Source: Solirubrobacter ginsenosidimutans
GTDB taxonomy: Bacteria; Actinomycetota; Thermoleophilia; Solirubrobacterales; Solirubrobacteraceae
Direction: 5' to 3'
DNA length: 64,000 nucleotides
Assembly: GCF_027587205.1 (NCBI RefSeq)
Contig: NZ_JAPDOD010000044.1
Span: 1-64,000 of the forward strand
How positions within the stretch are numbered: the stretch's first letter is position 1; every line of letters begins with the position of its first letter. Below the pieces are notes generated by a model. It did no database searches and had not been told where the DNA came from. It was given only the letters and a program-made list of their open reading frames with translations. A program made the position numbers and the translations under genes. Positions 45,884 through 63,045 of this stretch are shown piece by piece.

Positions 45884-48800
45884 CTAGCGCACCCACAACT
45901 GGTCGAGCAGCGTGAACAAGGACTGATGGCTCTGGACGTTTCCGACGCGGCGCGACACATAGACGACCGACCGATGGTTCGTCAGAGGCACGGCCGGCGC
46001 CAGATCGACCAGGCGCCGGTCGGCCGCTGCCAGCGCGCTCACCGGGTCAGGGTCGCGGCCGTCGAGTGCCGCGCCGACGCTGCGAGCGAGTGGGCCGTCG
46101 CAGAACCGCGACACGTTCTCGCGCAGCCGCTCGGCCGGCGTGGCGCAGGTGAAATGGGGCGCGATGAAGTTCGCCGCGCTCACGTAGTCGCCCGACCAGC
46201 CCATGAACCCCATCTGCGCGCCGTCGTCGTAGACCGAGCCGAAGTACTCGAGGAGCGTGAGCACGTGCAGCGAGGCGCGGAACCCGAGCGCGTTCAGCAG
46301 CCCCGCGAAGTAGCGCCCGACGTCGCGCCGGAACTCCGGCACGACGACGGTGACCCGTGACCCCGCGCGCCCCGACCCCGCGATGAGCCCGCGTGCGCGG
46401 CGCAGGTCCGGTGCGCCCCACGGCGCCCGCGTATAGGGGCAATAGGGCTCGTACCCAGGTGCGACGGCAGGCACGAACTGGCACGTCGGCGCGGCCACGG
46501 CCGCGCCACCCGTGAGCCTGACGATCCGGGCGCGGTCGATCGCAAAGCTCAGCGCGCGCCGGACGTCGAGCGCGTCGAACGGCGGCCGCGAGACGTTGAG
46601 GAACATCCACTCCGTGACCGCGTTGAGCACGCTGTGCACGCGCGCGGGCGAGCCGGCCGTGAGCGCCTTCAGCCGCGCGGACGAGACGAAGCTGCTGAAC
46701 GGCTCGGCGAGGACCACGAGATCGGCGTCGCCGCGGTCGACCGTGGCGATCTGCGCTTCGACACCGGCCGGCGGCGTGAACGCGACCTCGATGCGCTCCG
46801 CGAAGCCGGCCGGGCGAGCGCGCGCGCCGAAGTAGGGATTGCGGACGAGCAGCCCGCCAGTCTCGAGATCCCAGCGCGCGACGCGGTAGGGACCGGTCCC
46901 GGGCGGCACCCCGCTCGCTCCGGCGGGCACGACGTAGGCGAACGCGGTCGTGAGCTTGTGCGGGAATTCCGCGTCGGGACGCGTGAGGTGGATCGTCACC
47001 GTCCGCGCTCGCGGGTCGGACTCGATCCCCGCGGACAGGTCGCAGCGCCGCGCGCAGCCGCCGGCGCCGACGATCCCGTCGAAGTAGGGCGGATGGTTGG
47101 CCCGGGTGGCGACGAGCATCCGCTCCATCGACGCCCGGAAGTCACCGGCCCGGACCGGAGTGCCGTCCGAGTAGCGCAATCCGCGCCGGAGTGTGAAGAC
47201 GTAGGTCCTACCGCCCCGAGTCGGCCGCGGGACGCTCGTGGCCAGCGCGCCGACGAGCGTGGCTCCGCTCGCCCCGCCGACGCGCCGGTAGCCGACGAGG
47301 CCGTCGTAGGCGAGCGAGCTCAGATTCCAGGTCTGCCAGCTCCACCCCTCCGGGTGCAGCCAGTCGATCGGGACCCGGATCGGCTTCGCGGTCGGCATCC
47401 GCACCCGCAACGTGCCGCCGCGATGCGTCGCCTGTGGTGCGACGCCCGCCGCCCAGACAGCGCCGCGGGCGGCCGCGATCGCCGCCGGGCAGCTTCCCAC
47501 CGCGACGCGCCCGGCGACGCGCACCGTCACCGGGTCCACGCGCACGACCGTGCGGTCCTCGCCGCCCGCGACCCACACCGCACCCTCGCCCGCCGCGACC
47601 GCTGTGGGATCGCGCCCCACGCTCACGACGCCGGTGACCGCGTTGCGGGCCGGATCGATCCGCGAGAGCGTCCCGTCGTGGCGGTTGACGACCCATACCG
47701 CACCCTCGCCGACCGCGATCGCACTCGGTCCCTGGCCGACGCCGACCGTGCTGACGACCTTCCCGGAGCGGGCGTCGATCCGCGCGACGGTCCCGGTCTC
47801 CTCGCTCGCGACCCAGACCGCGCCCGCACCCGCGGCGATCGCCGTCGCGCTGGAGCCGAGCCGGACCACTTGCGTGGTGAGCTCGCGCCCGATCACGATC
47901 CGGCGGACCGCCTGGTCGACGCCGGAGGCGACCCAGAGCGCGCCGCCCGCGACAGCGACCGAGCGCGGGGCGTTGCCCGCGGCGTAGCGGGCGACGACGG
48001 CGTTGTCCTCGGGGTCGATCTGGATGACCCGGCGCCCGCTGCCGTCGGCCACCCAGACCGAGCCGAGCCCGTAGGCCAGCGCCGACGGCGCGCCGCCGAC
48101 GGTGATCGCGCCGACCTGCTCGTCGTCGATGCGCGAGACCGTGCCGTCGAGCGCGTTCGCCACCCACACCGACCCGCCGCCGGCGATCGCGGCCGAGGCG
48201 CCGTGGCCGATCCGCAGCTGACGCGCGATGCGCTCGCCGTCGATCAGGCCCGCGTGGTCTTCGTCGATGCGTTCGAGGCCGCCGGGGCGAGCGACCGCGA
48301 ACACGCCCAGCGCGACGAGCGGCGCCGCGGCGATCAGCGCCCAGCGACGCCGGCGCCGCCGCCGGGGCGCGACCGCCGGGCGCGGGAGGTCAAGCGAAGG
48401 GTCCTGGGCCAGGACAGCACGCTGCAGCTCCCGCAGCTCCGCGCCGGGCTCGACGCCGATGCGCTCGACCAGCAGCGCGCGCGCCTGCTGGTAGGCCGCG
48501 AGCGCCTCGGCCTGGCGCCCGGACCGGTAGAGCGCGAGAATCCGCTGCGCGTGGAAGCGCTCGCGCAGCGGCTCGGCGTCCAGCAGCCCGGCCAGCTCGG
48601 CCAGGATCTCGCGATGCCGGCCCGCGTCGAGGTCCGCGTCGACGGCCGCCTCCGCGACGCGCCAGTGCAGCTCGTCCAGCTGGCGGATCTCGGACGCGGC
48701 GAACGGCTCGTCGGCGACGTCCGCGAGCGGTGCCCCGCGCCACAGGCCGAGCGCGTCGCGCGGGCGCCCGTCGGAGAGCAGGCGCTCGGCGCGCTCGCGG

Positions 48801-49075
48801 TCCAGCTCGCCGTCGAGCGTCAGCTCATACCCGCGCCCGCGGGTCGCGATGTCGGCGCCGAGGCGCCGCAGTTGCGAGACGTAGTGCTGGACCATCTTCG
48901 GCGCGCTCGACGGCAGCGCCTCTCCCCACAGGCCCTCGGCCAGCCGGTCCGTGGAGACCGTTCGCCCCGCCTCCAGCGCGAGCATTGCCAGCAGCGCCCG
49001 CTGCTTGCGGGCCCCGAGCGCGAGTGGCCGGCCGTCGAGGCGAGCCTCGACCGGCCCGAGCAGGAATACGTCCAT
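45884..49075 (-). CDS. Transmembrane BTAD regulator fused to beta-propeller and oligopeptide-binding domain
   Basis: Protein of 1063 residues with four parts. Residues 1-90: OmpR/SARP-type winged helix (FLLGPVEARLDGRPLALG, KQRALLAMLALEAGR). 93-235: bacterial transcriptional activation domain. 236-263: a run of Arg then one membrane helix. About 285-550: seven repeats with W-V-A at 40-residue steps (W304, 341, 381, 421, 461, 501, 541), a seven-bladed propeller. 551-1063: an SBP_bac_5-like oligopeptide-binding domain (GGTLRVRM, LRRGLRYSDGTPV, VRRALSFAIDRARI). This topology suggests an outside sensor wired directly to DNA binding, like CadC/ToxR. ATG at 49075 starts the conserved domain (a TTG/GTG-type start 13 codons upstream is possible). 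ECF sigma gene follows. Confidence 0.88.
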   Translation of the reverse strand: MDVFLLGPVEARLDGRPLALGARKQRALLAMLALEAGRTVSTDRLAEGLWGEALPSSAPKMVQHYVSQLRRLGADIATRGRGYELTLDGELDRERAERLLSDGRPRDALGLWRGAPLADVADEPFAASEIRQLDELHWRVAEAAVDADLDAGRHREILAELAGLLDAEPLRERFHAQRILALYRSGRQAEALAAYQQARALLVERIGVEPGAELRELQRAVLAQDPSLDLPRPAVAPRRRRRRRWALIAAAPLVALGVFAVARPGGLERIDEDHAGLIDGERIARQLRIGHGASAAIAGGGSVWVANALDGTVSRIDDEQVGAITVGGAPSALAYGLGSVWVADGSGRRVIQIDPEDNAVVARYAAGNAPRSVAVAGGALWVASGVDQAVRRIVIGRELTTQVVRLGSSATAIAAGAGAVWVASEETGTVARIDARSGKVVSTVGVGQGPSAIAVGEGAVWVVNRHDGTLSRIDPARNAVTGVVSVGRDPTAVAAGEGAVWVAGGEDRTVVRVDPVTVRVAGRVAVGSCPAAIAAARGAVWAAGVAPQATHRGGTLRVRMPTAKPIRVPIDWLHPEGWSWQTWNLSSLAYDGLVGYRRVGGASGATLVGALATSVPRPTRGGRTYVFTLRRGLRYSDGTPVRAGDFRASMERMLVATRANHPPYFDGIVGAGGCARRCDLSAGIESDPRARTVTIHLTRPDAEFPHKLTTAFAYVVPAGASGVPPGTGPYRVARWDLETGGLLVRNPYFGARARPAGFAERIEVAFTPPAGVEAQIATVDRGDADLVVLAEPFSSFVSSARLKALTAGSPARVHSVLNAVTEWMFLNVSRPPFDALDVRRALSFAIDRARIVRLTGGAAVAAPTCQFVPAVAPGYEPYCPYTRAPWGAPDLRRARGLIAGSGRAGSRVTVVVPEFRRDVGRYFAGLLNALGFRASLHVLTLLEYFGSVYDDGAQMGFMGWSGDYVSAANFIAPHFTCATPAERLRENVSRFCDGPLARSVGAALDGRDPDPVSALAAADRRLVDLAPAVPLTNHRSVVYVSRRVGNVQSHQSLFTLLDQLWVR

Positions 49076-49179
49076 CGAGCGTCCGAGCGCGAGCCTACAG
49101 CGCGCCTCGACCACGGCTCTACCGGCGCTAGACCACGTATGAGGAGGCTGGGAGCAACCGAACCACGAGGAGGTTCCCC

Positions 49180-53231: not shown

Positions 53232-54902
53232 CTAGAAGCTGAGGGTCAGCTTCGAGCTGCGCTCGCCGGCGCCGTCGGAGACGACGCGGGCGGTCACGGC
53301 CAGCTTCTTCTTCTTGGCCAGCTTGGCCGTGCCGGAGGCGAGCTTGACCTTGATCGTCTTGCTCTGGCCGGCGCCGACCGTGTAGTTCGCGCGACCGAGC
53401 TCGAGCTTGGCCTTGAGGGGGCCCACCTTGATCGCGCCCGACGAGAACAGCGCCACGGAGCCCTTGCAGCCCGCGGTGCCGGCCGGGCAGGAGACCTTGA
53501 CCTGAGCGACGCCCTTGGCGACCTTGGCGGTCTTGCTCAGCGACGCGGCGCCCGCGGCCGGACCCGGGTTCGGAGCGGGAGGCGGAGCCGGCGCGCCGCC
53601 GACGCTCTCGACGGTCTCGACGTCGCCCGCGACCGCGTCGAGATTGTCGACGAGGGCGGTGTCGGCGCCCGCGCCGCCGACGACGAAGTCGGCCTTGGCG
53701 TCGCGCGTGGCCAGCGTGTCGTCGCCGTCGCCGCCGTCGAGGCGGTCGTTGCCGAGCGAGCCGTCGAGGACGTCGTTGCCCGAGCCGCCGTTGACGTCGA
53801 GGTTCATCGTGACGTCCTGCGCGGTGTGCAGCGTGTCGTTGCCGCCGAACGTGTTGAGCTGCATCAGCTCGGCGCTGCCGATGCTGAGGTTGAACGGCGC
53901 GTTGGTGCGGTCGTAGCGGACGCGGCCGTTCTCGAGCTTGATGAACGAGTTGTCGTCGGCGTTGCCGAGGTCGTTCTCGATCACGTCGAAGCCGGCGTCG
54001 CCGTTCATCACGTCGTTGCCGTCGCCGTTGGTCCACACGATCGTGTCATCGCCGCCCGCGCCGTTGAGCGTGTCGTTGCCACGGTCGCCGAGGATGCGAT
54101 CCGGGCCGGCGCCGGTGGTGATCGTGTCATCGCCGGGCCCGGCGTCGATGTTCATGCCGATGGCGACGCCGGCGGCGGTCGTCAGCGTGTCATTGCCCGA
54201 GAAGGACGTGAGCGTCAGCTTCTCGGTATCGATCGAATCGACCGTGAACGGCGCGTTGGTGCGGGCGAAGTGCACGGCGGCGCCGACCTGCGTGATCGCG
54301 TTGACATCGTCGGCGTTGCCCTCGGTGATCAGGGTCTCGTCGACGCCCGGGCCGGCCTGGTTGGTGTCGTTGCCGTCACCGTTGGCCCAGATCGTGACAT
54401 CGTTGCCGTTGCCGCCGACGATCGTCTCGTTGCCGCGGAAGCCGGTGATCCGGTCGTTGCCGTCGCCGCCGTCGATGGTGTCGGCGACGCCGGTGCCGAG
54501 GATGATGTCATCGCCCTCGCCGCCGTTGAGCGCCGGGGAGCCGGCGAAGCTCGGCGCCTGGACGTTGATGTTGTCGTTGCCGCCGCCGCCGTTGACGACG
54601 AGGTTCGCCGTGCCGTTGGACGGGACGGTGACCTTGCCGGCGCCTGGATCGAAGTCGGTGTTGTCCTCGATGCCGACGCCCACCTGGCCGGTGACGGGGA
54701 AGTTGTGGGTGATCAGGCCGGCGCCGTTGACCGTGAGCGTGATGTTGTCGCTCGCGTTGTCGGAGTCGATCGTCAGCGTGCCGTTGGCGAACTGGGGAGT
54801 CACCGCTGCGCTGGCCGCGCCGGGGAGCGCGAGCGCCGCGACCCCCGCGGCGAGCGCCAGCGCGGCGATGCGCGGAGGAGTGGTTCGGATTCTCGGCTTC
54901 AT
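53232..54902 (-). CDS. Secreted RTX-like calcium-binding repeat protein
   Basis: Protein of 556 residues with a signal peptide (1-33). It contains many GGxGxD-type nonapeptides (GGEGDDIILG, GGDGNDRITG, GGDGDDTLAT) that form calcium-loaded beta rolls. Two ~125-residue internal units, starting near GNGNDVTIWANGDGND and GAGGDDTIVWTNGDGND and each containing RTNAPF, are tandem copies. The last ~100 residues are a separate beta-sandwich (VSCPAGTAGCKGSVALFS, with a possible disulfide). No hydrolase domain is seen, so a surface or matrix structural role is likely. Start ATG at 54902 (TTG at 54911 possible). Last gene of the leftward redox run, 28 bases after it. Confidence 0.85.
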   Translation of the reverse strand: MKPRIRTTPPRIAALALAAGVAALALPGAASAAVTPQFANGTLTIDSDNASDNITLTVNGAGLITHNFPVTGQVGVGIEDNTDFDPGAGKVTVPSNGTANLVVNGGGGNDNINVQAPSFAGSPALNGGEGDDIILGTGVADTIDGGDGNDRITGFRGNETIVGGNGNDVTIWANGDGNDTNQAGPGVDETLITEGNADDVNAITQVGAAVHFARTNAPFTVDSIDTEKLTLTSFSGNDTLTTAAGVAIGMNIDAGPGDDTITTGAGPDRILGDRGNDTLNGAGGDDTIVWTNGDGNDVMNGDAGFDVIENDLGNADDNSFIKLENGRVRYDRTNAPFNLSIGSAELMQLNTFGGNDTLHTAQDVTMNLDVNGGSGNDVLDGSLGNDRLDGGDGDDTLATRDAKADFVVGGAGADTALVDNLDAVAGDVETVESVGGAPAPPPAPNPGPAAGAASLSKTAKVAKGVAQVKVSCPAGTAGCKGSVALFSSGAIKVGPLKAKLELGRANYTVGAGQSKTIKVKLASGTAKLAKKKKLAVTARVVSDGAGERSSKLTLSF

Positions 54903-54930
54903 GCCACCCAAGACGCGGGTGGCCTAGCGC

Positions 54931-57495
54931 CTATTCCCCGCCGAGGACCCCCCAGCGTCCCTGGCGCAGCCCCGCGAGGTGCGGTGTCACGTCGGTGCCC
55001 TGGGTGATCGCGGCGCGCACCGGGGCGACCTCGGCCTGGTACCCGAGCAGGATCGCGCCGATGATCCTGCCGTCGGAGATCACGAGCTTGCGGTACTTGG
55101 TGCCGAGGTCGTCCTCGAGCGCGATCACCTCGTCGTCGGGCGAGGACGGCTCGAAGCGGCCGATCGACGTCAGCTCGATGCCGACGACCTTCAAGATCGT
55201 CACCGGCACGATGCCCGCGTAGGTCTTCTCGCCGCCCGCGACGGTGTCCGCCGCGACCTCCGCCATCGCCACCGCGGTCGGCCACAGCCCGGGGAGCTGG
55301 CCACCGAACTCGGCCACGTCCCCCGCGGCGAGCACGTTCGGATCGTCGGTGCGCATGCGCTCGTCGACCAGCACGCCGCGCTTGACGGCCAGGCCCGCGG
55401 CCTTGGCCAGGTCGACGTTGGGCCGGATGCCGGCGGCGACGAGCAGGATGTGGGCCTCCAGCCGGCGGCCGTCGGTCAGCGTCACGCCGCGCAGGCGCCC
55501 GTTGGCGTCGACGGACTCGGCCTCGGCCTCCATCTCGAACGCGAGGCCGAGACCCTCGAGGTAGTTGCGCAGGATCTTCGCCGCGCGGGCGTCGAGCTGG
55601 CGTTTGAGCAGGCGGTTCGAGCGCTCGAGCACGACGGTCTTCAGGCCGATCTTGTGCAGCGCGTACGCGGCCTCCAGGCCGAGCAGGCCGCCGCCGGCGA
55701 TCGCGGCGAAGCGGGTGGCCGGGCGCTGGGCGAAGGCCCGCAGCCCGATCGCGTCGTCGGCCGAGCGCAGGACCGCGGTGCCGGGCACGCCGAAGCCTTC
55801 GATCGGCGGGACGTGGCTGCTCGAGCCGGTGGCGAGGATCACGCGGTCGTAGCCGAGCGTCTCCCCCGTCCCGAGTTGCACCGTGCGCGCCGCGCGGTCG
55901 ATCTCCAGCGCACGGGTGTTCAGCCAGGCGGTGATCCGGCGCTCCTCGTACCAGGCGTCCGGGTTCAAATAGAGCCCCTGCATCGCGCTGCGCCCGTAGA
56001 CGAGCCGCGAGATGCCCATGCGGTTGTAGAGGTGGTGCGGCTCCTCGGCGATCAGGTCGATCTCGACGTCCGGGTGGCGGCGGCGCAGCTGGTCGGCCGC
56101 GGTCACGCCCGCGATGCCGTTGCCGACCACGACCACCTTCTTGAGCGAGGTGTCGAACTTGATCTCGATCTGGCTGAGGTTCGGCGTCTCGGCCTTGTCG
56201 GGCGTGAGCGCCACCTCGACCGGGCCGGACACGCGCACGCAGCACGCCATCCGCGTGTTGTCGGCGTACCCGAGCCGCCCGAGGGTCGCGAGCTCGTCGT
56301 CGGTGACGCGCGACAGGTTCTCCAGGCCGGAGCGGATCGCGACCGGATCGGCACCGCAGACGCCCATCCGGCAGCCCGCCTCGATCGTCATCCCCGCGGC
56401 CTCGGCGACCTCGAGCAGCGTCTGGCCGGGCTTGGGCGCGACGCGCGTGTTGTCGGGCACGAAGGTGACCTCGGGCGCGTTGGCGGCGCGGCGGGCGAGC
56501 GTCCGGACCCCGACGCCGGCGACCGTGCCCGCGGGCGCGGCCACCGGGCCGCTCGCGGACTCCAGGAACGGCTTCTCCTTGCGCACCGTGCGCACGAACC
56601 ACGTCGCCGCCAGCGCGATCGCCGCCGCCCGCCCCACCCACGTCAGCGCCTCGGGCAGGATGCGGGTCGCGAACCAATAGAAGATGCTGAACGCGACCGC
56701 GCCGTAGAGCGACGTGATCGTGTGCGCGGAGGTCTTCCAGAACGCGATCAGCGTGGCGAAGGAGGCGATGCTGATCGCGACGGCCACCGCCATCCAGCCG
56801 AGATTCGCCGCGGCGAAGAAGCCGAAGATCAGGCCCGGGAAGGCGCCGACGAAGTACTTGCGGTAGCCGCTCCAGTAGGTGTCGCCCTCGTTGAGGTCGG
56901 CGAGGTAGGCGGCGCGCGGATTGAAGTCGTAGCAGTTCTTGACGCACCCGACGCACGGCTGGCAGTGCGCGTTGGCGACCATCAGCAGCGGCGTCTGGCC
57001 GTAGATCCGCTGCACGGGCAGCAGCGGGCAGATCGTCGAGCACCAGCCGCTCTTGCCCTTCAGGAGCATCCCGCCGGTGAACGCCGCGGTCATCGCGCCG
57101 AGCAGCAGGATCGCGCTGAATGGCCCGCTGTCGTCGAGGCCCAACCGCCGCAGCACGACGAAGCCGATGAACAGGCTGAAGGCGATCACGTAGCCGTACT
57201 CCTTCAACCACGGCGGCGCGGTCTTGGCCTTGGTGATGCCCAGCGCCCGCGGCGTCTGATTCGAGGCGGCGAGCGGGCAGATGTTGCGCCAGACGCCGGG
57301 CGCGACCAGGAAGAGCACCGGGAGCAGCGGGATGACGACCTTCCACATCACCACCAGGCCCGTGTCCGGGACGGCGATCAGCAGCGCGGCCACGCCCAGC
57401 GCGAGGACGATGCTCCCGCTCCGGATCGCCTGCCACCAGCGGATCGGCAGCCGCGACGGGATCTGGGTGTAGTTCGGGAAGCTCAGCCCGTCCAC
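54931..57495 (-). CDS. Membrane-anchored 4Fe-4S / 2Fe-2S-like / FAD oxidoreductase, copy 2
   Basis: Protein of 854 residues. Residues 1-310: six to seven membrane helices of the NosR/NapH/CcoG polyferredoxin type, with WRNICP (C73), WCSTICP (C152, C156) and a full CQPCVGCVKNC cluster site (C178, C181, C184, C188). About 340-430: ferredoxin-like domain GCRMGVCGAD...RMACCV, where the third ligand position is D383 and an extra cysteine (C419) follows C418. From 453: NAD(P)/FAD oxidoreductase of the NirB/rubredoxin-reductase type (VVVVGNGIAGVTAADQL, later AGGGLLGLEAAYAL, AAGDVAEF). It should pass electrons between NAD(P)H, flavin, iron-sulfur centres and a membrane partner. GTG start, overlapping the CNBD gene by 13 bases. 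Paralogue of 57951-60569. Confidence 0.87.
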   Translation of the reverse strand: MDGLSFPNYTQIPSRLPIRWWQAIRSGSIVLALGVAALLIAVPDTGLVVMWKVVIPLLPVLFLVAPGVWRNICPLAASNQTPRALGITKAKTAPPWLKEYGYVIAFSLFIGFVVLRRLGLDDSGPFSAILLLGAMTAAFTGGMLLKGKSGWCSTICPLLPVQRIYGQTPLLMVANAHCQPCVGCVKNCYDFNPRAAYLADLNEGDTYWSGYRKYFVGAFPGLIFGFFAAANLGWMAVAVAISIASFATLIAFWKTSAHTITSLYGAVAFSIFYWFATRILPEALTWVGRAAAIALAATWFVRTVRKEKPFLESASGPVAAPAGTVAGVGVRTLARRAANAPEVTFVPDNTRVAPKPGQTLLEVAEAAGMTIEAGCRMGVCGADPVAIRSGLENLSRVTDDELATLGRLGYADNTRMACCVRVSGPVEVALTPDKAETPNLSQIEIKFDTSLKKVVVVGNGIAGVTAADQLRRRHPDVEIDLIAEEPHHLYNRMGISRLVYGRSAMQGLYLNPDAWYEERRITAWLNTRALEIDRAARTVQLGTGETLGYDRVILATGSSSHVPPIEGFGVPGTAVLRSADDAIGLRAFAQRPATRFAAIAGGGLLGLEAAYALHKIGLKTVVLERSNRLLKRQLDARAAKILRNYLEGLGLAFEMEAEAESVDANGRLRGVTLTDGRRLEAHILLVAAGIRPNVDLAKAAGLAVKRGVLVDERMRTDDPNVLAAGDVAEFGGQLPGLWPTAVAMAEVAADTVAGGEKTYAGIVPVTILKVVGIELTSIGRFEPSSPDDEVIALEDDLGTKYRKLVISDGRIIGAILLGYQAEVAPVRAAITQGTDVTPHLAGLRQGRWGVLGGE

Positions 57496-57932
57496 CCCGG
57501 CGTGTGATCGTCACCGGCCCGCAGGCGGGCGGACAGGATGCGCCCAAGGTCGAGCAGGATGTGGCGGGCGAGCGCGGGGTTGCGAGCGCTGAGGGACTCG
57601 AAGGCCTCGTAGCTGAGCCGCATCACCTCCCCGTCGCTCATCGCCTCGACGTCGACCGCGCGCGGCGCGCCGTCCAGGAACGCGCCTTCGCCGACCGTCG
57701 TGATCGGGTGGATCACGCCGCTCGGCGCGCGCAGCCAGCCGTCGACGAGCAGGTACAGCGCCCGGTCCTGCGTCCCGGCCCGCAGGACCTTGTCCCCGGG
57801 CCGGAAGAGCAACGTCTCGGCGTGGTCGAGCAGCATCCCCCAGTCGTCCTCGCCGCGATCATTGAGGAAGCCCGGCAGACCATGCTCGGAGTCGGGCTCC
57901 TGCTCACTCGGGTAATCGAAGAAGCCCGACAT
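57483..57932 (-). CDS. Stand-alone cyclic-nucleotide-binding domain protein, copy 2
   Basis: Protein of 149 residues made of one CRP/CAP-type beta-barrel domain without any DNA-binding helix-turn-helix. The barrel runs from LLFRPGDKVLRAGTQDRALYLLVDG (about 42-65) through the phosphate-binding cassette GEGAFLDGAPRAVDVEA (about 83-99) to a C-terminal helix; the cassette keeps E-x-A-FLDG and P-R-A-V. It could bind cAMP or cGMP and control the oxidoreductase whose gene overlaps its 3' end by 13 bases. It closely resembles the protein at 60557-61009. Start ATG at 57932, 18 bases after the upstream oxidoreductase gene. Confidence 0.87.
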   Translation of the reverse strand: MSGFFDYPSEQEPDSEHGLPGFLNDRGEDDWGMLLDHAETLLFRPGDKVLRAGTQDRALYLLVDGWLRAPSGVIHPITTVGEGAFLDGAPRAVDVEAMSDGEVMRLSYEAFESLSARNPALARHILLDLGRILSARLRAGDDHTPGWTG

Positions 57933-57950
57933 GTCGCGTCATGGGCGATC

Positions 57951-60569
57951 CTACGCTGGCACCGCCGGTGCGAGGGGCATTTCTCCGCTCATCCCCGCCA
58001 GGACGTCCCAGCGACCCGCCCGGAGGTTGTCGATCTGATGGGTGACATCGAAGCCGCGGGTGATCGCGGTGCGGACGGCCGCGACCTCCTTGGAGAACCC
58101 AAGGAGGATCGCGCCCACGATGCGGCCGTCCGCCACCACGAGCTTGCGGTAACGCCCGGAGGCGTCTTCGAGGGCGATCTCCTCTTCGTGCGATCCGGCC
58201 GCTTCGAAGCGGCCGATCGACGTGAGTTCGATGCCCACGACTTTGAGGATCGTGACCGGGATCACCGGGTCATAGAGCTTGCTTCCGCCGACGGCGACGT
58301 CGGCCGCGATCTCGGCCTGGGCGACCGCCGTAGGCCACAGACCGGGAACCTGGCCCTCGAACTCGGCGACGTCGCCGGCCGCGAGGATGTGCGGGTCGCC
58401 GGTCTGCATGCGGGCGTTGACGAGCACGCCGCGGTTGGTGGCCAGGCCCGCGGCTTTCGCGAGTTCGGCGTTGGGCTGGATGCCCGCCGCGACGAGCAGG
58501 ATCTCGGCGTCCAGGCGGCGGCCGTCGACGAGCTCGATCGAGTCCAGCCGTCCGTGGCCGCTGACCGCCTTGGTCTCCGCGCTGGTGATGATCTCCAGGC
58601 CGAGCCCTTCGAGGTACTTCTGCAGCAGGTGCGCCGCCCGCTCGTCGAGTTGGCGCTTGAGCAGCCGGTCGGAGCGCTCGAGCACGGTCGCCCGCATCCC
58701 GAGCTGGTGCAGCGCGTACGCCGCTTCCAGGCCGAGCAGGCCGCCGCCGGCGATCGACGCCTTCTTGGTCGCGTGGCGCTGGGCGAAGTTGCGCACCCGG
58801 ATCGCGTCGTCGGCCTTGCGCAGGACGCCGCTGCCGGCGAGGCCGAAGCCCTCGATCGGCGGGACGAACGCGCGCGAGCCCATCGCCAGGATCAGCTTGT
58901 CGTAGGGCAGCTTCTCGCCGGTGCCGAGGTGGACCGTGCGGTTGACGCGGTCGATCTGTAGCGCGCGGGTGTTGAGCCAGGTCTCGACGTCGCGCTCGCC
59001 GTACCACGTGTCCGGGTTCAGGTAGAGGCCCTGCATCGCGGACTTGCCGTAGACGAGGCGGGCGATGCCCATGCGGTTGTAGAGGTGGTGCGGCTCCTCG
59101 GCGATCAGGTCGATCGCCGTGACCGGGTGGCGGCGGCGGATGTGGTCCACCGCGGTCACGCCGGCGATGCCGTTGCCGATCACCACGACGTTGGCGATCG
59201 ACTTGTCGTAGTTGAAGCCCTGGACCTTGCTCAGGCTGGGGACGGCCGCCTTGTCGGGCTTGAGCGCGACGGAGACGGGGCCTTCCACGCGGGCGCAGCA
59301 GGCCATGCGGGTGTTGGGGGCCAGGCCGAGGCGCTCGAGCGTCGCCTTCTCGTCGTCGGAGATGCCGCTGAGGCAGTCCATGCCGTCCTTGATCGCGACG
59401 GGATCGGCGCCGCAGATGCCCATCCGGCACCCGGACTCGATCGTCATCCCGTTGGACTCGGCGATTTCCAGCAGGCTCAGGCCCGGCTTGGCGACGACGG
59501 TCTTGTCGTCGTCGACGAAGTGGACCTCGGGCGCGCCGGAGCGCAGCGCGCGGTTGTTGGCGATCGAGCGGCTGGCGGCGCCGCCCGGCGCGACGGCGAC
59601 GACCGGCGCCGCTGCCTGGGCCAGGAACGGCTTCTCCTTGCGCCAGGTGCGGACGAGCCACACGGCGGCGAGCGCGACGGCGGCGGCGCGGATCGGCCAC
59701 GTGGCCGGCTCGAGCTGGCCGCCGACCTCGTAGTAGAAGATGCCGAACGCGATCGCGCCGAACGTCGACGTGATCGTGTGCGCCGAGACCTTGACGAACG
59801 TGACGGCCAGCGCGAACAGCGCGGTGCTGACCGCCATGTAGAGCAGCATTCCGAGGACGTCGTTGTCGGCGGTCTCGAAGAAGCCGAGGATCAGCCCCGG
59901 GAAGGCGCCGACGAAGAACTTGCGGTACCCGCTCCAGTAGCCGTCGGCGTCGTTGAGGTCGGCCAGGTAGGCCGCGCGCGGGTTGAAGTCGTAACAGGAC
60001 TTGGCGCAGCCGACGCACGGCTGGCAGTGGTTGTTGCCGACGAGCGCGAACGGCGTCTGACCGTAGATGCGCTGGACCGGCAGCAGCGGGCAGATGCTCG
60101 AGCACCAGCCGCTCTTGCCCTTGAGCACCATGCCGCCGGCGAACGCGCCGGCCATCGCGCCGAGCAGCAGCAGCGCGCTGAGCGGGCCGTTGTCGTCGAG
60201 GCCGATCTTGCGCAGGATCACGAAGCCGACGAACGAGCCGGTGGCGATGACGTAGCCGTACTCCTTCAGCCACTTCGGCGGGTTGAGGCCCTTGGTGATG
60301 CCGAGCAGGCGCGGCGTCTGGTTGGAGGTCGCCAGCGGGCAGATGTTGCGCCAGACGCCGGGCGCGACCATGAACAGCAGCGGCAGGCTCGGGATGACGC
60401 CCTTCCACATGACCTTCAGGCCGGTGTCGGGCACGGCGATCAGCAGACCGGCGACGACGAGGGCGCCGAGCCAGACGACGGTGCGGATCGCTCGCCACGC
60501 CGTGAGGTTCAGGCGCGACGGGATCTGCGTGTAGTTGGGGAACGTGATCGCGGCCATCAGCCCGTCCAC
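57951..60569 (-). CDS. Membrane-anchored 4Fe-4S / 2Fe-2S-like / FAD oxidoreductase, copy 1
   Basis: Protein of 872 residues with the same order of parts as the gene at 54931-57495. Membrane iron-sulfur half 1-320 with C77, WCSSICP (C156, C160) and HCQPCVGCAKSC (C182, C185, C188, C192); ferredoxin-like domain GCRMGICGAD (C381, C386, D389 in place of the third cysteine) and RMACCARV (C424, C425); FAD/NAD(P) half from about 450 (VVVIGNGIAGVTAVDHI, AGGGLLGLEAAYAL, AAGDVAEF). A 13-residue C-terminal tail is extra. The GTG at 60569 corresponds to the start of the paralogue; an ATG at 60557, overlapping the CNBD stop as TGATG, is an alternative. Electron donor and acceptor are unknown. Confidence 0.87.
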   Translation of the reverse strand: MDGLMAAITFPNYTQIPSRLNLTAWRAIRTVVWLGALVVAGLLIAVPDTGLKVMWKGVIPSLPLLFMVAPGVWRNICPLATSNQTPRLLGITKGLNPPKWLKEYGYVIATGSFVGFVILRKIGLDDNGPLSALLLLGAMAGAFAGGMVLKGKSGWCSSICPLLPVQRIYGQTPFALVGNNHCQPCVGCAKSCYDFNPRAAYLADLNDADGYWSGYRKFFVGAFPGLILGFFETADNDVLGMLLYMAVSTALFALAVTFVKVSAHTITSTFGAIAFGIFYYEVGGQLEPATWPIRAAAVALAAVWLVRTWRKEKPFLAQAAAPVVAVAPGGAASRSIANNRALRSGAPEVHFVDDDKTVVAKPGLSLLEIAESNGMTIESGCRMGICGADPVAIKDGMDCLSGISDDEKATLERLGLAPNTRMACCARVEGPVSVALKPDKAAVPSLSKVQGFNYDKSIANVVVIGNGIAGVTAVDHIRRRHPVTAIDLIAEEPHHLYNRMGIARLVYGKSAMQGLYLNPDTWYGERDVETWLNTRALQIDRVNRTVHLGTGEKLPYDKLILAMGSRAFVPPIEGFGLAGSGVLRKADDAIRVRNFAQRHATKKASIAGGGLLGLEAAYALHQLGMRATVLERSDRLLKRQLDERAAHLLQKYLEGLGLEIITSAETKAVSGHGRLDSIELVDGRRLDAEILLVAAGIQPNAELAKAAGLATNRGVLVNARMQTGDPHILAAGDVAEFEGQVPGLWPTAVAQAEIAADVAVGGSKLYDPVIPVTILKVVGIELTSIGRFEAAGSHEEEIALEDASGRYRKLVVADGRIVGAILLGFSKEVAAVRTAITRGFDVTHQIDNLRAGRWDVLAGMSGEMPLAPAVPA

Positions 60570-61009
60570 CCCGCGATCTGGTCGCTCGCGTTGCGGAAGC
60601 GGGCGGCCAGGATCGAGCTGATGTCGGTCAGGACGGCGCGGCCGAGGTCGGGGCGGCGGGCCGAGAGCGCGAGGAACGACTCATGCCCGAGGCGCAGGAC
60701 CTCGGCGTCGCTCGTCGCGGTGACCGTCACCGCGCGCGGGCGGCCGTCGAGGAAGGCGACCTCCCCGAACGTGCTGACGGGAGCGACCGGCCCGCTCGGG
60801 GCGTGCAGGCGGCCGTCGACGAGCAGGTACAGCGCGCGGTCGCGCTCGCCCTGGGTCAGGACCTCCTGGCCGGCGCGAAACAGCCGCGTCTCGGTGTGCT
60901 CGAGCAGGAGCGCCCAGTCCTCGTCATTGCGGTCCTCGAGGAACCCGGGCGGGTTCTCGGTGGGGAGCTGCGCGGTGCCGGGGTATTGGAAGAAGCCGCT
61001 GGTATCCAT
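60557..61009 (-). CDS. Stand-alone cyclic-nucleotide-binding domain protein, copy 1
   Basis: Protein of 150 residues, a single CRP/CAP-type sensor barrel with no HTH. Key segments: TRLFRAGQEVLTQGERDRALYLLVDG (about 42-66) and phosphate-binding cassette FGEVAFLDGRPRAVTV (about 82-97), which keeps the G-E-x-A and R-A-x-V features needed to hold a cyclic nucleotide. Start ATG at 61009 shares one base with the kinase stop (TGATG), and the 3' end overlaps the oxidoreductase gene by 13 bases. Placed between a Ser/Thr kinase and a redox enzyme, it is probably a signalling subunit or adaptor. Confidence 0.87.
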   Translation of the reverse strand: MDTSGFFQYPGTAQLPTENPPGFLEDRNDEDWALLLEHTETRLFRAGQEVLTQGERDRALYLLVDGRLHAPSGPVAPVSTFGEVAFLDGRPRAVTVTATSDAEVLRLGHESFLALSARRPDLGRAVLTDISSILAARFRNASDQIAGWTG

Positions 61010-63012
61010 CAGGGAGCGATCCGGGTGATCGTGTGGTCGGCGTGGTTGGCGACCCAGACGGCGCCGGCCCCGCTCGCGATCCCGAGCGGCTGCTGGCCCA
61101 CGGCGATCGGCGAGCCGACGACGCGGCCGGTGGTCGGGTCGAGGCGGGTGACGCTGTTGTCGTCGTGGTTGGTGACCCACACGAAGCCGTTCCCGAAGGC
61201 CAGCTGGCGCGGGTTGTTGCCGACCTTCGTCGTGCCGAGCACGGCGCCGGTCTTGCGATCCAGGCGGGTCACGGTGCCGTCGCCGGAGTTCGCGATCCAC
61301 GCCGCGTCGACGGTCTCGATCACCCCGCGCGGCTTGGACCCGACGGCGATCGGCTTGCCGATCACCTGCGCGGTCGAGGGGTCGATGCGGGTGACGGTGT
61401 CGTCCCCGTTGTTGGCCACCCACACGAACCGGCGGCCGACGAAGATGCCCGACGGCTTGGAGCCGACGCCGATCGGCGCGCCGACGATCGCCGGCGCGGC
61501 GCGGTCGATGCGGTTGACGGTGTTGTCGTTGACGTTGGCGACCCAGACGAGCTGCTTGCCGAGGCTGATCGCCTCCGGCCGGTCGCCCACGGGCACCTTC
61601 GCCGTCGGAACGATCTCGCCCGCCGCCTGGAAGCGCGACACGGCGTCCGAGCCGGCGCTCGCGAGCCACACGACGCCCTTGCCGGCGACGACGCCGTCGG
61701 GCCGCGTCCCGGCCTTGATCGGCTCGCCGACGACCTTGTTGGCCTCGGGGTCGATGACGCTCAGCGTCCCGGCCTGCTGATTGGCGACGAAGACCTGCCC
61801 GCCGCTGACCGCGACGCCGTCCGGCCCCTTCCCGACCTTGATCGTCGCCACGGCCTTCGGATCGCCGGTGGGCGGGGCGGGTGTGGCCTCGGGCGGCTGC
61901 GCCGGCGTGCCGGCCTGCGCGGTCGCGGTCGCGGTCGCCGCCACGGCGGCCTTCGCCGCGGGCTTGTCGTCGCCCCCGCCGATCACGCCACTCGCCGCCA
62001 ACCCGGCCGCGGCCAGCCCGGCCACGAGGATCGTCGGCAGCGCGATCCCGATCGCGACCTTCGTCCGCCGCGACACCTCCCCACCAGAGGGGTCAGACCC
62101 CTTAACAATCGGATTTCGCGCTGAGCGGGACTTTTTGTGTTGCGTTTGTGTTGAGGGGTCTGACCCCCCCATGAGCGCGGCTTGGGCGGCGCGGGCGAGG
62201 TCGCCGGCCGATTGGTAGCGGTCGTCGGGCTCCTTGGCCATCGCCTTGGCGACGACGGCGTCGAGCGCGAGTGGGGCGTCGGGGCGGGCCTCGGTGACGA
62301 CCGGGGGCGGCTCGGAGACGTGGGCGTACATCTTCGCCATGTCCGCGGGCTTGTCGTACGGGAGGCGCTTCGTGAGCGCCTGGTAGAGGACGCAGCCGAG
62401 CGAGTAGACGTCGGTGCGGGCGTCCATCGCCTCGCCGCGGATCTGTTCCGGGGCGGCGTAGTCGACTGAGCCGACGAACAGGCCGGTCTTGGTCAGGGCG
62501 TCCTGGGAGGCGTGCTTCGTGAGCCCGAAGTCGGTGAGGTAGACGTGCTCCTCGGCGCCGATCAGGACGTTGGCGGGCTTGACGTCGCGGTGGACCAGCC
62601 CGCGGGCGTGGGCGGCGTCGAGCGCCGCCGCGACCTGGGCGATGATCCGCACGGCGCGGTCGGGGGCGAGCTCCGGCTCGCGAGCGAGCAGGTTCGCGAG
62701 ATCGAGGCCCTCGACGTAGCGCATGGCGATGAAGAGGTGCTCGTCGGCCTCGCCGGCCTCATAGACCGGGATCACGTTGGGGTGATCGATGGAGGCCGCG
62801 GTCTCCCATTCGCGCTTGAACCGCTCCCGGAAGGAGCGGTCGCCCGCGAAGTTGGCGGCAATGAGTTTGAGGGCGACGGGTCGCCCGAGCGCGACCTGGG
62901 TCGCTCTATAGACAATGCCCATGCCGCCACGGCCGGCTTCCGCCTCGATGCGGTAACCGGCGAAGGTGGAGCCGGGCGCGAATGTGGGGGCTGAGGTGTT
63001 GATACCCCCCAG
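61009..63012 (-). CDS. Transmembrane Ser/Thr protein kinase with beta-propeller sensor
   Basis: Kinase domain with HRDVKPANVLI, DFGLTKH and APEQIRGE intact, one membrane helix, a low-complexity linker, then seven propeller blades (VWVANNGDDTVTRIDP-type) outside the cell. The only ATG before the domain (62922) falls in the middle of the Gly-rich ATP loop (GRGGMG). The frame is open further upstream and encodes the expected FAGYRIEAEAGRGG, up to a TAG near 63040, with no ATG/GTG/TTG. The best start is a CTG at 63012 with AGGGG 8 bases before it, giving 667 residues; a standard gene caller would give 61009-62922. In the juxtamembrane linker, an in-frame REP-like element (62088-62167) encodes GSDPS twice. 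Directly upstream is a transglycosylase gene. Confidence 0.9.
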   Translation of the reverse strand: MGGINTSAPTFAPGSTFAGYRIEAEAGRGGMGIVYRATQVALGRPVALKLIAANFAGDRSFRERFKREWETAASIDHPNVIPVYEAGEADEHLFIAMRYVEGLDLANLLAREPELAPDRAVRIIAQVAAALDAAHARGLVHRDVKPANVLIGAEEHVYLTDFGLTKHASQDALTKTGLFVGSVDYAAPEQIRGEAMDARTDVYSLGCVLYQALTKRLPYDKPADMAKMYAHVSEPPPVVTEARPDAPLALDAVVAKAMAKEPDDRYQSAGDLARAAQAALMGGSDPSTQTQHKKSRSARNPIVKGSDPSGGEVSRRTKVAIGIALPTILVAGLAAAGLAASGVIGGGDDKPAAKAAVAATATATAQAGTPAQPPEATPAPPTGDPKAVATIKVGKGPDGVAVSGGQVFVANQQAGTLSVIDPEANKVVGEPIKAGTRPDGVVAGKGVVWLASAGSDAVSRFQAAGEIVPTAKVPVGDRPEAISLGKQLVWVANVNDNTVNRIDRAAPAIVGAPIGVGSKPSGIFVGRRFVWVANNGDDTVTRIDPSTAQVIGKPIAVGSKPRGVIETVDAAWIANSGDGTVTRLDRKTGAVLGTTKVGNNPRQLAFGNGFVWVTNHDDNSVTRLDPTTGRVVGSPIAVGQQPLGIASGAGAVWVANHADHTITRIAP
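62088..62167. repeat. REP-like pair of GGGGTCNGACCCC palindromes inside the kinase gene
   Basis: AGGGGTCAGACCCCTTAA (62088-62105) and AGGGGTCTGACCCC (62154-62167) are each palindromic around one base and are inverted relative to one another, flanking about 48 bases of clearly lower GC content than the rest of the gene. The whole 80 bases are read through in frame in the kinase linker. Such paired palindromes are the hallmark of BIME/REP elements moved by REP-associated tyrosine transposases; none is encoded in the window. Confidence 0.75.
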
Positions 63013-63032
63013 GACGCGCGCCCCTGGGGGGT
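63004..63032 (-). promoter_or_regulatory. 10-bp stem hairpin at the kinase gene start
   Basis: ACCCCCCAGG (63004-63013) and CCTGGGGGGT (63023-63032) pair perfectly around a 9-base loop. It lies 13 bases beyond the transglycosylase stop and covers the proposed CTG start and its AGGGG site. No T-run follows, so sequestering of the kinase start is at least as likely as termination. Confidence 0.5.
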
Positions 63033-63045
63033 TATTCCGCCGTCG

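What the first reader, a model, noticed from the sequence alone, without database searches (positions are those of the whole stretch)
54931..61009. Tandem duplication of a cyclic-nucleotide-sensor / membrane redox module
Two copies of a two-gene unit (stand-alone CNBD protein followed by a 4Fe-4S-membrane/2Fe-2S-like/FAD oxidoreductase) lie head to tail. In both copies the CNBD 3' end overlaps the redox 5' end by exactly 13 bases, and both proteins are closely similar between copies. A CNBD with no HTH next to a large redox fusion, downstream of a propeller Ser/Thr kinase, suggests a signalling-controlled electron-transfer system. I know no described system with this composition.
Basis: partly seen in the sequence, partly recalled or inferred. 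Interest (0 to 1): 0.82.

Follow-up and report, generated by a model that had tools for sequence, protein, structure and literature searches.

The report
Sensor-paired membrane redox module, duplicated
Two side-by-side copies of a gene pair join a small signal-sensing protein to a membrane enzyme that probably moves electrons from NAD(P)H; relatives in distant bacteria keep the pairing but often add or swap in a different kind of sensor, which points to a signal-controlled electron-transfer system for which I found no description.

Summary
On the minus strand lie a propeller Ser/Thr kinase, CNBD1, redox1, CNBD2 and redox2, tightly packed; the redox copies are 68% identical, the CNBD copies 57%, and both pairs overlap by 13 nt. 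The pair is not a local oddity: of 80 redox loci (four phyla), 68 have a CNBD gene of this family beside them. Of the other 12, six (Nocardia) carry an FHA domain fused to the redox protein, four are cut by a contig end, two lack a CNBD. FHA domains, fused or in a neighbouring gene, occur in 33 of 80 loci; cyclases lie near 8, Ser/Thr kinases near 7. Where FHA is present the CNBD has usually lost its cNMP-binding residues or is absent (30 of 32 rows, against 4 of 44 without FHA). The redox protein has eight predicted TM helices, cytoplasmic Fe-S loops (by charge), a ferredoxin domain with Asp for the third cluster Cys (82 of 83) and an NAD(P)H/FAD domain. Both window units arose by block duplication and keep intact cNMP residues. 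Best reading: a second-messenger- or phospho-controlled membrane NAD(P)H oxidoreductase. Gating, ligand and acceptor are inferred, not shown. Eight searches of an open paper library found no such system.

The parts
61009..62922 (-). Ser/Thr protein kinase with C-terminal beta-propeller (a TM segment between them, by eye); first gene of the run. The listed ATG lies inside the P-loop, so the true start is upstream (about 63003).
   Evidence: Pfam Pkinase 4.1e-44, YNCE propeller 5.9e-08; start examined. A kinase gene is directly upstream of the CNBD in S. soli and S. phytolaccae too.
60557..61009 (-). CNBD1, stand-alone cyclic-nucleotide-binding domain protein, 150 aa, no HTH
   Evidence: Pfam cNMP_binding 4.5e-13 and nothing else
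60731..60766 (-). Phosphate-binding cassette of CNBD1 (GEVAFLDGRPRA): the Glu and Arg expected for cNMP binding are present
   Evidence: Alignment of 67 CNBD rows; the roles of Glu and Arg are recalled knowledge of CNBDs
57951..60569 (-). Redox1: membrane Fe-S domain + ferredoxin domain + FAD/NAD(P)H domain, 872 aa
   Evidence: Pfam, AlphaFold mean pLDDT 90.0, pTM 0.64
59610..60569 (-). Membrane domain of redox1 (residues 1-320): eight long helices read as TM, N-in/C-in by charge
   Evidence: AlphaFold of residues 1-339, mean pLDDT 90.6; K+R counts per loop over 80-83 proteins
59994..60341 (-). Seven invariant Cys of redox1 (C77, C156, C160, C182, C185, C188, C192) in two loops predicted cytoplasmic; likely [4Fe-4S] ligands
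   Evidence: Cys in each of the 83 aligned proteins that covers the column (C77: 80 of 80 with 3 gaps; others 83 of 83)
59298..59429 (-). Ferredoxin-like cluster motif of redox1: C381-x4-C386-x2-D389 ... C424; Asp replaces the third Cys
   Evidence: Asp in 82 of 83 aligned proteins and in all 120 listed database relatives, the best 120 of 1682; the two best solved ferredoxins, aligned, have Cys there
58050..59195 (-). FAD/NAD(P)H domain of redox1 of the ferredoxin reductase / NirB N-terminal type
   Evidence: Pyr_redox_2 5.1e-57, Rubredoxin_C 7.6e-16; Foldseek best match TodA 4emi, E 7.8e-34
57483..57932 (-). CNBD2, 149 aa; cassette Glu and Arg present
   Evidence: Pfam cNMP_binding 7.6e-12; alignment
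54931..57495 (-). Redox2, 854 aa, same domains as redox1
   Evidence: Pfam; 68% identical to redox1

Best explanation
The pair is a two-component, signal-controlled membrane NAD(P)H oxidoreductase. Electrons go from cytoplasmic NAD(P)H to FAD, to the atypical (3 Cys + Asp) [2Fe-2S] ferredoxin domain, to [4Fe-4S] centres on the cytoplasmic face of an eight-helix membrane domain, and from there most likely into the quinone pool. The CNBD protein encoded with it is its regulatory subunit: binding of a cyclic nucleotide would allow or stop electron flow. In other lineages an FHA domain, fused or in a neighbouring protein, takes over or adds a phosphothreonine input. The window carries two units that duplicated as a block and diverged, behind a sensor kinase. 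Shown here: domain composition, cofactor motifs, topology by charge, conserved pairing, sensor exchange, block duplication. Inferred: complex formation, ligand, direction of control, acceptor.
For: A CNBD of this family lies beside the redox gene in 68 of 80 loci from four phyla; 55 of the 65 upstream CNBD ORFs end within 104 nt of the first aligned redox codon. In 232 genomes of the order, hits to the CNBD family at E <= 1e-40 (at most 16 candidates per genome scored) are 8 places, all 8 next to a redox gene. FHA domains: 36 hits, all within 2.5 kb; kinases 7 of 7 within 3 kb; cyclases 7 of 8 within 5 kb, in 1129 kb of flanks. Pfam confirms six of those eight cyclases. CNBD cassette Glu and Arg are intact in both window copies. 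The FHA phosphothreonine motif is kept in 40 of 43 domains. FHA present with CNBD not intact or absent: 30 of 32 rows; FHA absent with CNBD not intact or absent: 4 of 44. Mean K+R is 2.1, 3.4, 5.5, 0.6, 3.1 in the loops read as inner and 0.4, 0.5, 0.3, 0.7 in those read as outer.
Against: No biochemical evidence at all. 23 of 67 CNBD rows lack the cassette Glu and 23 of 67 the Arg, so cNMP binding is not a family-wide trait. Two loci with enough upstream sequence lack a CNBD (L046, L054). No cyclase or FHA domain was found in the 64-kb window. Only 8 of 80 loci have a cyclase nearby. Quinone as acceptor rests only on topology and on the lack of a conserved acceptor gene. One inner loop (0.6) is no richer in K+R than the outer ones. 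The FHA/CNBD trade-off is strongly clade-bound: about four independent gains, and the pairs test cannot reach significance. The FHA, kinase and cyclase profiles were seeded from genes next to the module, which favours finding near ones.
Confidence: 0.5

Rival explanations
1. Same regulated enzyme, but the acceptor is not quinone: the membrane domain hands electrons to a protein partner (for example an oxygenase or a periplasmic reductase), in the manner recalled for NapH/NosR-type polyferredoxins.
For: Weak Fer4_5 similarity in 34 of 48 members at E <= 0.1. A Rieske oxygenase gene lies downstream in Andreprevotia (L015, Pfam; L017 by sequence).
Against: Clustering of ORFs of 100 aa or more within 6 kb showed no acceptor-like gene shared widely; apart from ORFs that look spurious to me and the sensors, the largest shared families were in 8 loci or fewer. 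Charge topology puts the metal loops on the cytoplasmic side.
Confidence: 0.22
2. Information flows the other way: the redox protein is the sensor of NAD(P)H or quinone state, and the CNBD, FHA protein, cyclase and kinase are its outputs.
For: FHA domains sit at the redox N-terminus in 12 of 80 loci, and FHA-cyclase ORFs lie next to it in L018, L030, L031 (Pfam for L018 and L030).
Against: CNBD and FHA are ligand-reading domains, most simply read as inputs; the conserved NAD(P)H/FAD domain looks like a working catalytic unit.
Confidence: 0.12
3. The CNBD is only a structural or assembly subunit, and cNMP binding is incidental or lost.
For: 21 loci have CNBDs that lost both cassette residues yet keep the gene beside the redox gene.
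Against: 42 of 67 rows keep both residues, including both window copies. 19 of the 21 degenerate ones have an FHA gene nearby and the other two lie near a contig end, as expected if the signal input changed.
Confidence: 0.12
4. A defence effector of Pycsar logic: a cyclase makes a cyclic nucleotide on infection and the CNBD switches on a harmful membrane redox reaction.
For: CNBD1 matches the PycTIR model and two neighbouring cyclases of other loci match PycC models in PADLOC; patchy distribution.
Against: I take those matches as generic to CNBD and class III cyclase folds; the redox protein matches no PADLOC model; no cyclase in the window.
Confidence: 0.04

Closest known systems
Ferredoxin/rubredoxin reductases and NirB N-terminal domain (TodA, BphA4, 3klj)
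   Same: FAD and NAD(P)H domain with the Rubredoxin_C end
   Different: Here fused to its own ferredoxin domain and a membrane domain; only the N-terminal half of NirB is matched, so not a nitrite reductase despite database names
Membrane 4Fe-4S proteins of the NapH/NosR/CcoG kind (Fer4_5; grouping recalled)
   Same: Membrane helices with Cys-rich loops, weak Fer4_5 match
   Different: Below the Pfam cut-off, eight helices, one CxxCxxCxxxC motif, fused to ferredoxin and FAD domains
Plant/adrenodoxin-type [2Fe-2S] ferredoxins (E. coli Fdx 1i7h)
   Same: Sequence match over the domain and three of four ligand Cys
   Different: Asp at the third ligand position in 82 of 83
Crp/Fnr regulators
   Same: CNBD; in the window with an intact phosphate-binding cassette
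   Different: No HTH; encoded with an enzyme
CNBD-controlled enzymes (Pat acetyltransferase, Pycsar effectors; recalled, weak matches)
   Same: A CNBD tied to a non-DNA-binding output
   Different: CNBD is a separate protein and the output is a membrane oxidoreductase; FHA can stand in its place
Family 2B encapsulins (CNBD in the shell; recalled; papers seen in a search listing only)
   Same: CNBD outside transcription control
   Different: No shell protein recognised here: CNBD1 scores 15.2 bits against a cut-off of 400

Membership tests
Nitrite reductase large subunit NirB | Full-length NirB score above the curated cut-off (578 bits), C-terminal half included | tested here: not met
   311 and 309 bits; the match covers only profile 1-395 (redox1) and 1-389 (redox2) of 794
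NAD(P)H ferredoxin/rubredoxin reductase fold | FAD and NAD domains plus Rubredoxin_C domain | tested here: met
   Pfam above cut-off in both copies; Foldseek TMt 0.90 to 4emi for redox1
Plant/adrenodoxin-type [2Fe-2S] ferredoxin | Four Cys ligands | tested here: not met
   Third position is Asp in 82 of 83; one protein (L075) has Cys
Plant/adrenodoxin-type [2Fe-2S] ferredoxin | Fer2 domain | tested here: met
   Fer2 3.4e-07 and 1.3e-06, above cut-off
NapH/NosR/CcoG-type 4Fe-4S membrane proteins | Fer4_5 domain above cut-off | tested here: inconclusive
   16.9 bits against a cut-off of 22 in redox1; 34 of 48 members match at E <= 0.1
Crp/Fnr transcription regulators | C-terminal HTH | tested here: not met
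   149-150 aa, only cNMP_binding found
cNMP-binding CNBD | Cassette Glu and Arg | tested here: met
   Present in both window copies
cNMP-binding CNBD | Measured cNMP binding | not testable with these tools
   Needs a binding assay
Pycsar | PycC cyclase beside a CNBD-TIR or CNBD-TM effector | tested here: not met
   No cyclase found in the window; redox protein has no PADLOC match
Family 2B encapsulin | Encapsulin 2B score above the curated cut-off | tested here: not met
   CNBD1 scores 15.2 bits against a cut-off of 400

The most novel reading that the evidence does not exclude
A widespread, undescribed class of membrane electron-transfer enzyme whose activity is set directly by second messengers: one redox core built round an Asp-substituted ferredoxin, with a plug-in sensor subunit that evolution exchanges between cyclic-nucleotide input (CNBD, with nearby cyclase) and phosphothreonine input (FHA, with nearby kinase), so that respiration or reductant supply is gated at once, without transcription.
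Probability: 0.35. Interest if true: 0.9.

Novelty: new variant of a known kind. Interest (0 to 1): 0.75.

Why it matters
As far as I recall, bacterial respiratory NAD(P)H dehydrogenases are thought of as controlled by gene expression and substrate supply. A stand-alone CNBD or FHA subunit tied to a membrane oxidoreductase in four phyla would link cyclic-nucleotide and Ser/Thr-kinase signalling directly to electron flow. It would also offer a target for the cyclases that lie beside some copies. The Asp-for-Cys swap kept in 82 of 83 proteins would make a cluster with altered ligation the norm of a family, and it is directly testable.
Full report
What is there. On the minus strand of this high-GC, Solirubrobacter-like window five genes follow each other: a Ser/Thr kinase with a propeller (61009-62922), CNBD1 (60557-61009), redox1 (57951-60569), CNBD2 (57483-57932), redox2 (54931-57495). 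Kinase and CNBD1 overlap as TGATG; each CNBD overlaps its redox gene by 13 nt, with the reservation that redox1 has an in-frame ATG at 60557. Redox copies are 68% and CNBD copies 57% identical. Database hits of redox1 include Solirubrobacter soli at 90%. No whole genome of the window is held.

The pair is conserved far beyond this genus. A scan of GTDB contigs with 18 redox sequences gave 92 relatives, of which 80 loci were kept: Actinomycetota, Pseudomonadota, Chloroflexota and, with one locus, Verrucomicrobiota. A CNBD profile finds a CNBD gene beside the redox gene in 68 of 80: 64 loci upstream within 600 nt of the first aligned redox codon, L005 and L006 directly downstream, L014 and L033 upstream with long FHA-bearing redox N-termini between. 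The 12 without: six Nocardia; L018, L071, L075, L079, where the contig ends at or near the redox gene; L046 and L054. The cassette alignment holds 67 rows: 65 ORFs within 600 nt plus the two of the window; the CNBDs of L005, L006, L014 and L033 and second ones in L007 and L008 were left out of it (the first four were looked at singly). The scan selected for two Cys motifs of the membrane part, so relatives without them are not in the count.

As a check in the other direction, the CNBD family was sought in the 232 genomes of the order: 8 places at E <= 1e-40, all 8 next to redox hits (at most 16 candidates per genome were scored). Of the 8 genomes with a redox hit, 7 have such a CNBD; in the eighth (G141) the redox gene is cut by the contig end. 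Weaker places were found too; the four read (L108, L109, L118, L119; E about 1e-28 to 1e-31) hold other genes beside the CNBD, and one at a contig end (L107) was not resolved. Four paralogous FAD proteins in the same genomes have no CNBD or FHA within the about 1.5 kb read on each side.

Distribution is patchy: 8 of 232 genomes in the order at E <= 1e-150, one of them a fragment; 2 of 396 in the phylum of the Nocardia genome, 1 of 398 in that of Rhodoblastus and 4 of 301 in that of the Chloroflexota genome at E <= 1e-120. Each of these four counts includes the genome used as centre, and the other hits are partial: G589 and G1059 at contig ends, G1050 without the membrane part, G1178 without the FAD part.

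Sensors are exchanged. FHA domains, checked with Pfam in nine proteins (L018, L030, L069, L048, L055; L005, L014, L021, L023), are fused to the redox N-terminus in 12 of 80 loci and lie in a neighbouring gene without a fused one in 21 of 80, so 33 of 80 in all. In Nocardia the fused FHA stands in place of the CNBD. Class III cyclases lie near 8 of 80 loci: FHA-cyclase (L018, L030, L031), CHASE2-cyclase (L038, L040, L044), response-regulator cyclase (L020), cyclase-AAA-TPR (L007); Pfam was run on six of them, L031 and L044 rest on local profiles. Two further Solirubrobacterales regions, L121 (beside a redox fragment) and L122, also have a CHASE2-cyclase; the third region read, L120, is the contig of L005 again. 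Kinases lie near 7 of 80 (L001, L004, L005, L032, L033, L065, L069; Pfam run on L004, L032, L033, L065). L002 and L003 begin inside what looks like the kinase's propeller. Over 1129 kb of flanks all 36 FHA hits lie within 2.5 kb, all 7 kinases within 3 kb, 7 of 8 cyclases within 5 kb. The profiles were seeded from near genes, which biases this; the kinase profile is the most general of them.

cNMP residues follow the sensor type. Cassette Glu is present in 44 of 67 CNBD rows, Arg in 44 of 67, both in 42. After leaving out seven loci where a contig end hides CNBD or FHA (L006, L018, L045, L066, L071, L075, L079), 76 rows remain: FHA absent and CNBD intact 40; FHA present and CNBD not intact or absent 30; FHA absent and CNBD not intact or absent 4 (L028, L039, L046, L054); FHA present and intact 2 (L030, L031, which also carry an FHA-cyclase) (residues of L005, L014, L023, L033 read). 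FHA needs at least four changes on the tree, but with four independent pairs the test cannot reach significance. FHA motifs are kept in 40 of 43 domains.

Redox protein. Seven Cys in the membrane part and three in the ferredoxin part are invariant where covered; the third ferredoxin ligand is Asp in 82 of 83 aligned proteins (L075 has Cys) and in the 120 listed of 1682 database relatives. An Asp-ligated cluster has a precedent of another kind, the [4Fe-4S] of NsrR (PMC5411485, abstract start in a search listing only). AlphaFold gives eight long helices read as TM, mean pLDDT 90.0 full length and 90.6 for residues 1-339; domain placement in the full model is less certain (pTM 0.64). Charges place the Cys loops in the cytoplasm. 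The NAD-site residue E631 is E in 38, Q in 26, H in 12 of 83 rows and is followed by Arg in 73, so NADH or NADPH is left open.

History. Redox1 pairs with S. soli copy 1 and redox2 with S. soli copy 2, both at SH-aLRT 100. Redox2 and CNBD2 each group with the single copies of S. deserti, S. taibaiensis and S. phytolaccae (redox SH-aLRT 90, 99; CNBD 84/80). CNBD1 falls in another clade (100/100) with database rows whose presumed redox partners (P0006, P0007, P0017) also group with redox1. One presumed pair disagrees: P0016 groups with redox1, while P0218, on a long branch, stands outside the CNBD1 clade. Rows from unnamed contigs were paired by equal contig length only. So the two-gene unit was most likely duplicated as a block before these species parted, and in the other three species only unit 2 is seen.

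Mechanism. I read the pair as a membrane NAD(P)H oxidoreductase with a regulatory CNBD, electrons running NAD(P)H, FAD, [2Fe-2S], [4Fe-4S], then most likely quinone. Shown: composition, motifs, pairing, exchange of sensors, block duplication. Inferred: complex, ligand, sign of control, acceptor.

Literature. Eight searches of the open paper library asked for such a system. Searches returned no paper; one search returned two papers on encapsulins and 29 papers, 15 of them listed, none on this by title; titles and abstract starts only were seen. Most subscription journals are not in that library, so this is no proof of absence.

Noticed in passing
62860-63045 (-): The kinase has no ATG, GTG or TTG upstream of its P-loop before the preceding stop; the start may be an ATC near 63003. 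S. soli has the same sequence there, 121 nt identical.
   Followed up: partly
63004-63032: GC-rich inverted repeat between the transglycosylase-like gene and the kinase, possibly a terminator (by eye).
   Followed up: no
58042-58184 and others: Runs of up to 143 identical nt against S. soli inside genes that average 86-89% identity; perhaps recombination.
   Followed up: no
L129 (unnamed Chloroflexota genome): A cousin without the membrane domain: a different N-terminus, then the Asp-type ferredoxin and FAD domains, with a CNBD gene and a large AAA/TPR gene beside it.
   Followed up: partly
L128:4451-6006: A CNBD gene next to a membrane domain alone; the ferredoxin and FAD part is missing.
   Followed up: partly
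L108, L109, L118, L119: A second class of stand-alone CNBD in Solirubrobacter, beside what looks like a winged-helix gene and a secreted hydrolase-like gene (names by eye).
   Followed up: partly
L065:1952-4467: Redox gene split over two frames in a gammaproteobacterial MAG.
   Followed up: no
L046 and L054: Redox genes without CNBD: L046 has a short N-terminus without Pfam match, L054 sits beside a GGDEF-EAL gene.
   Followed up: partly
L069:12612-14438 (-), also L021, L022, L025, L032: Nocardia loci have a converging conserved gene downstream; its C-terminus is FHA-like in L069 by Pfam and in L022, L025, L032 by a weak local match.
   Followed up: partly
45884-49114 (-): One long ORF that looks like a SARP/BTAD regulator, a propeller and an ABC peptide-binding protein in one chain (by eye).
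   Followed up: no
53232-54911 (-): Repeat-rich, secreted-looking protein directly after redox2; a similar gene follows the redox gene in S. soli, S. deserti, S. taibaiensis and S. phytolaccae.
   Followed up: no
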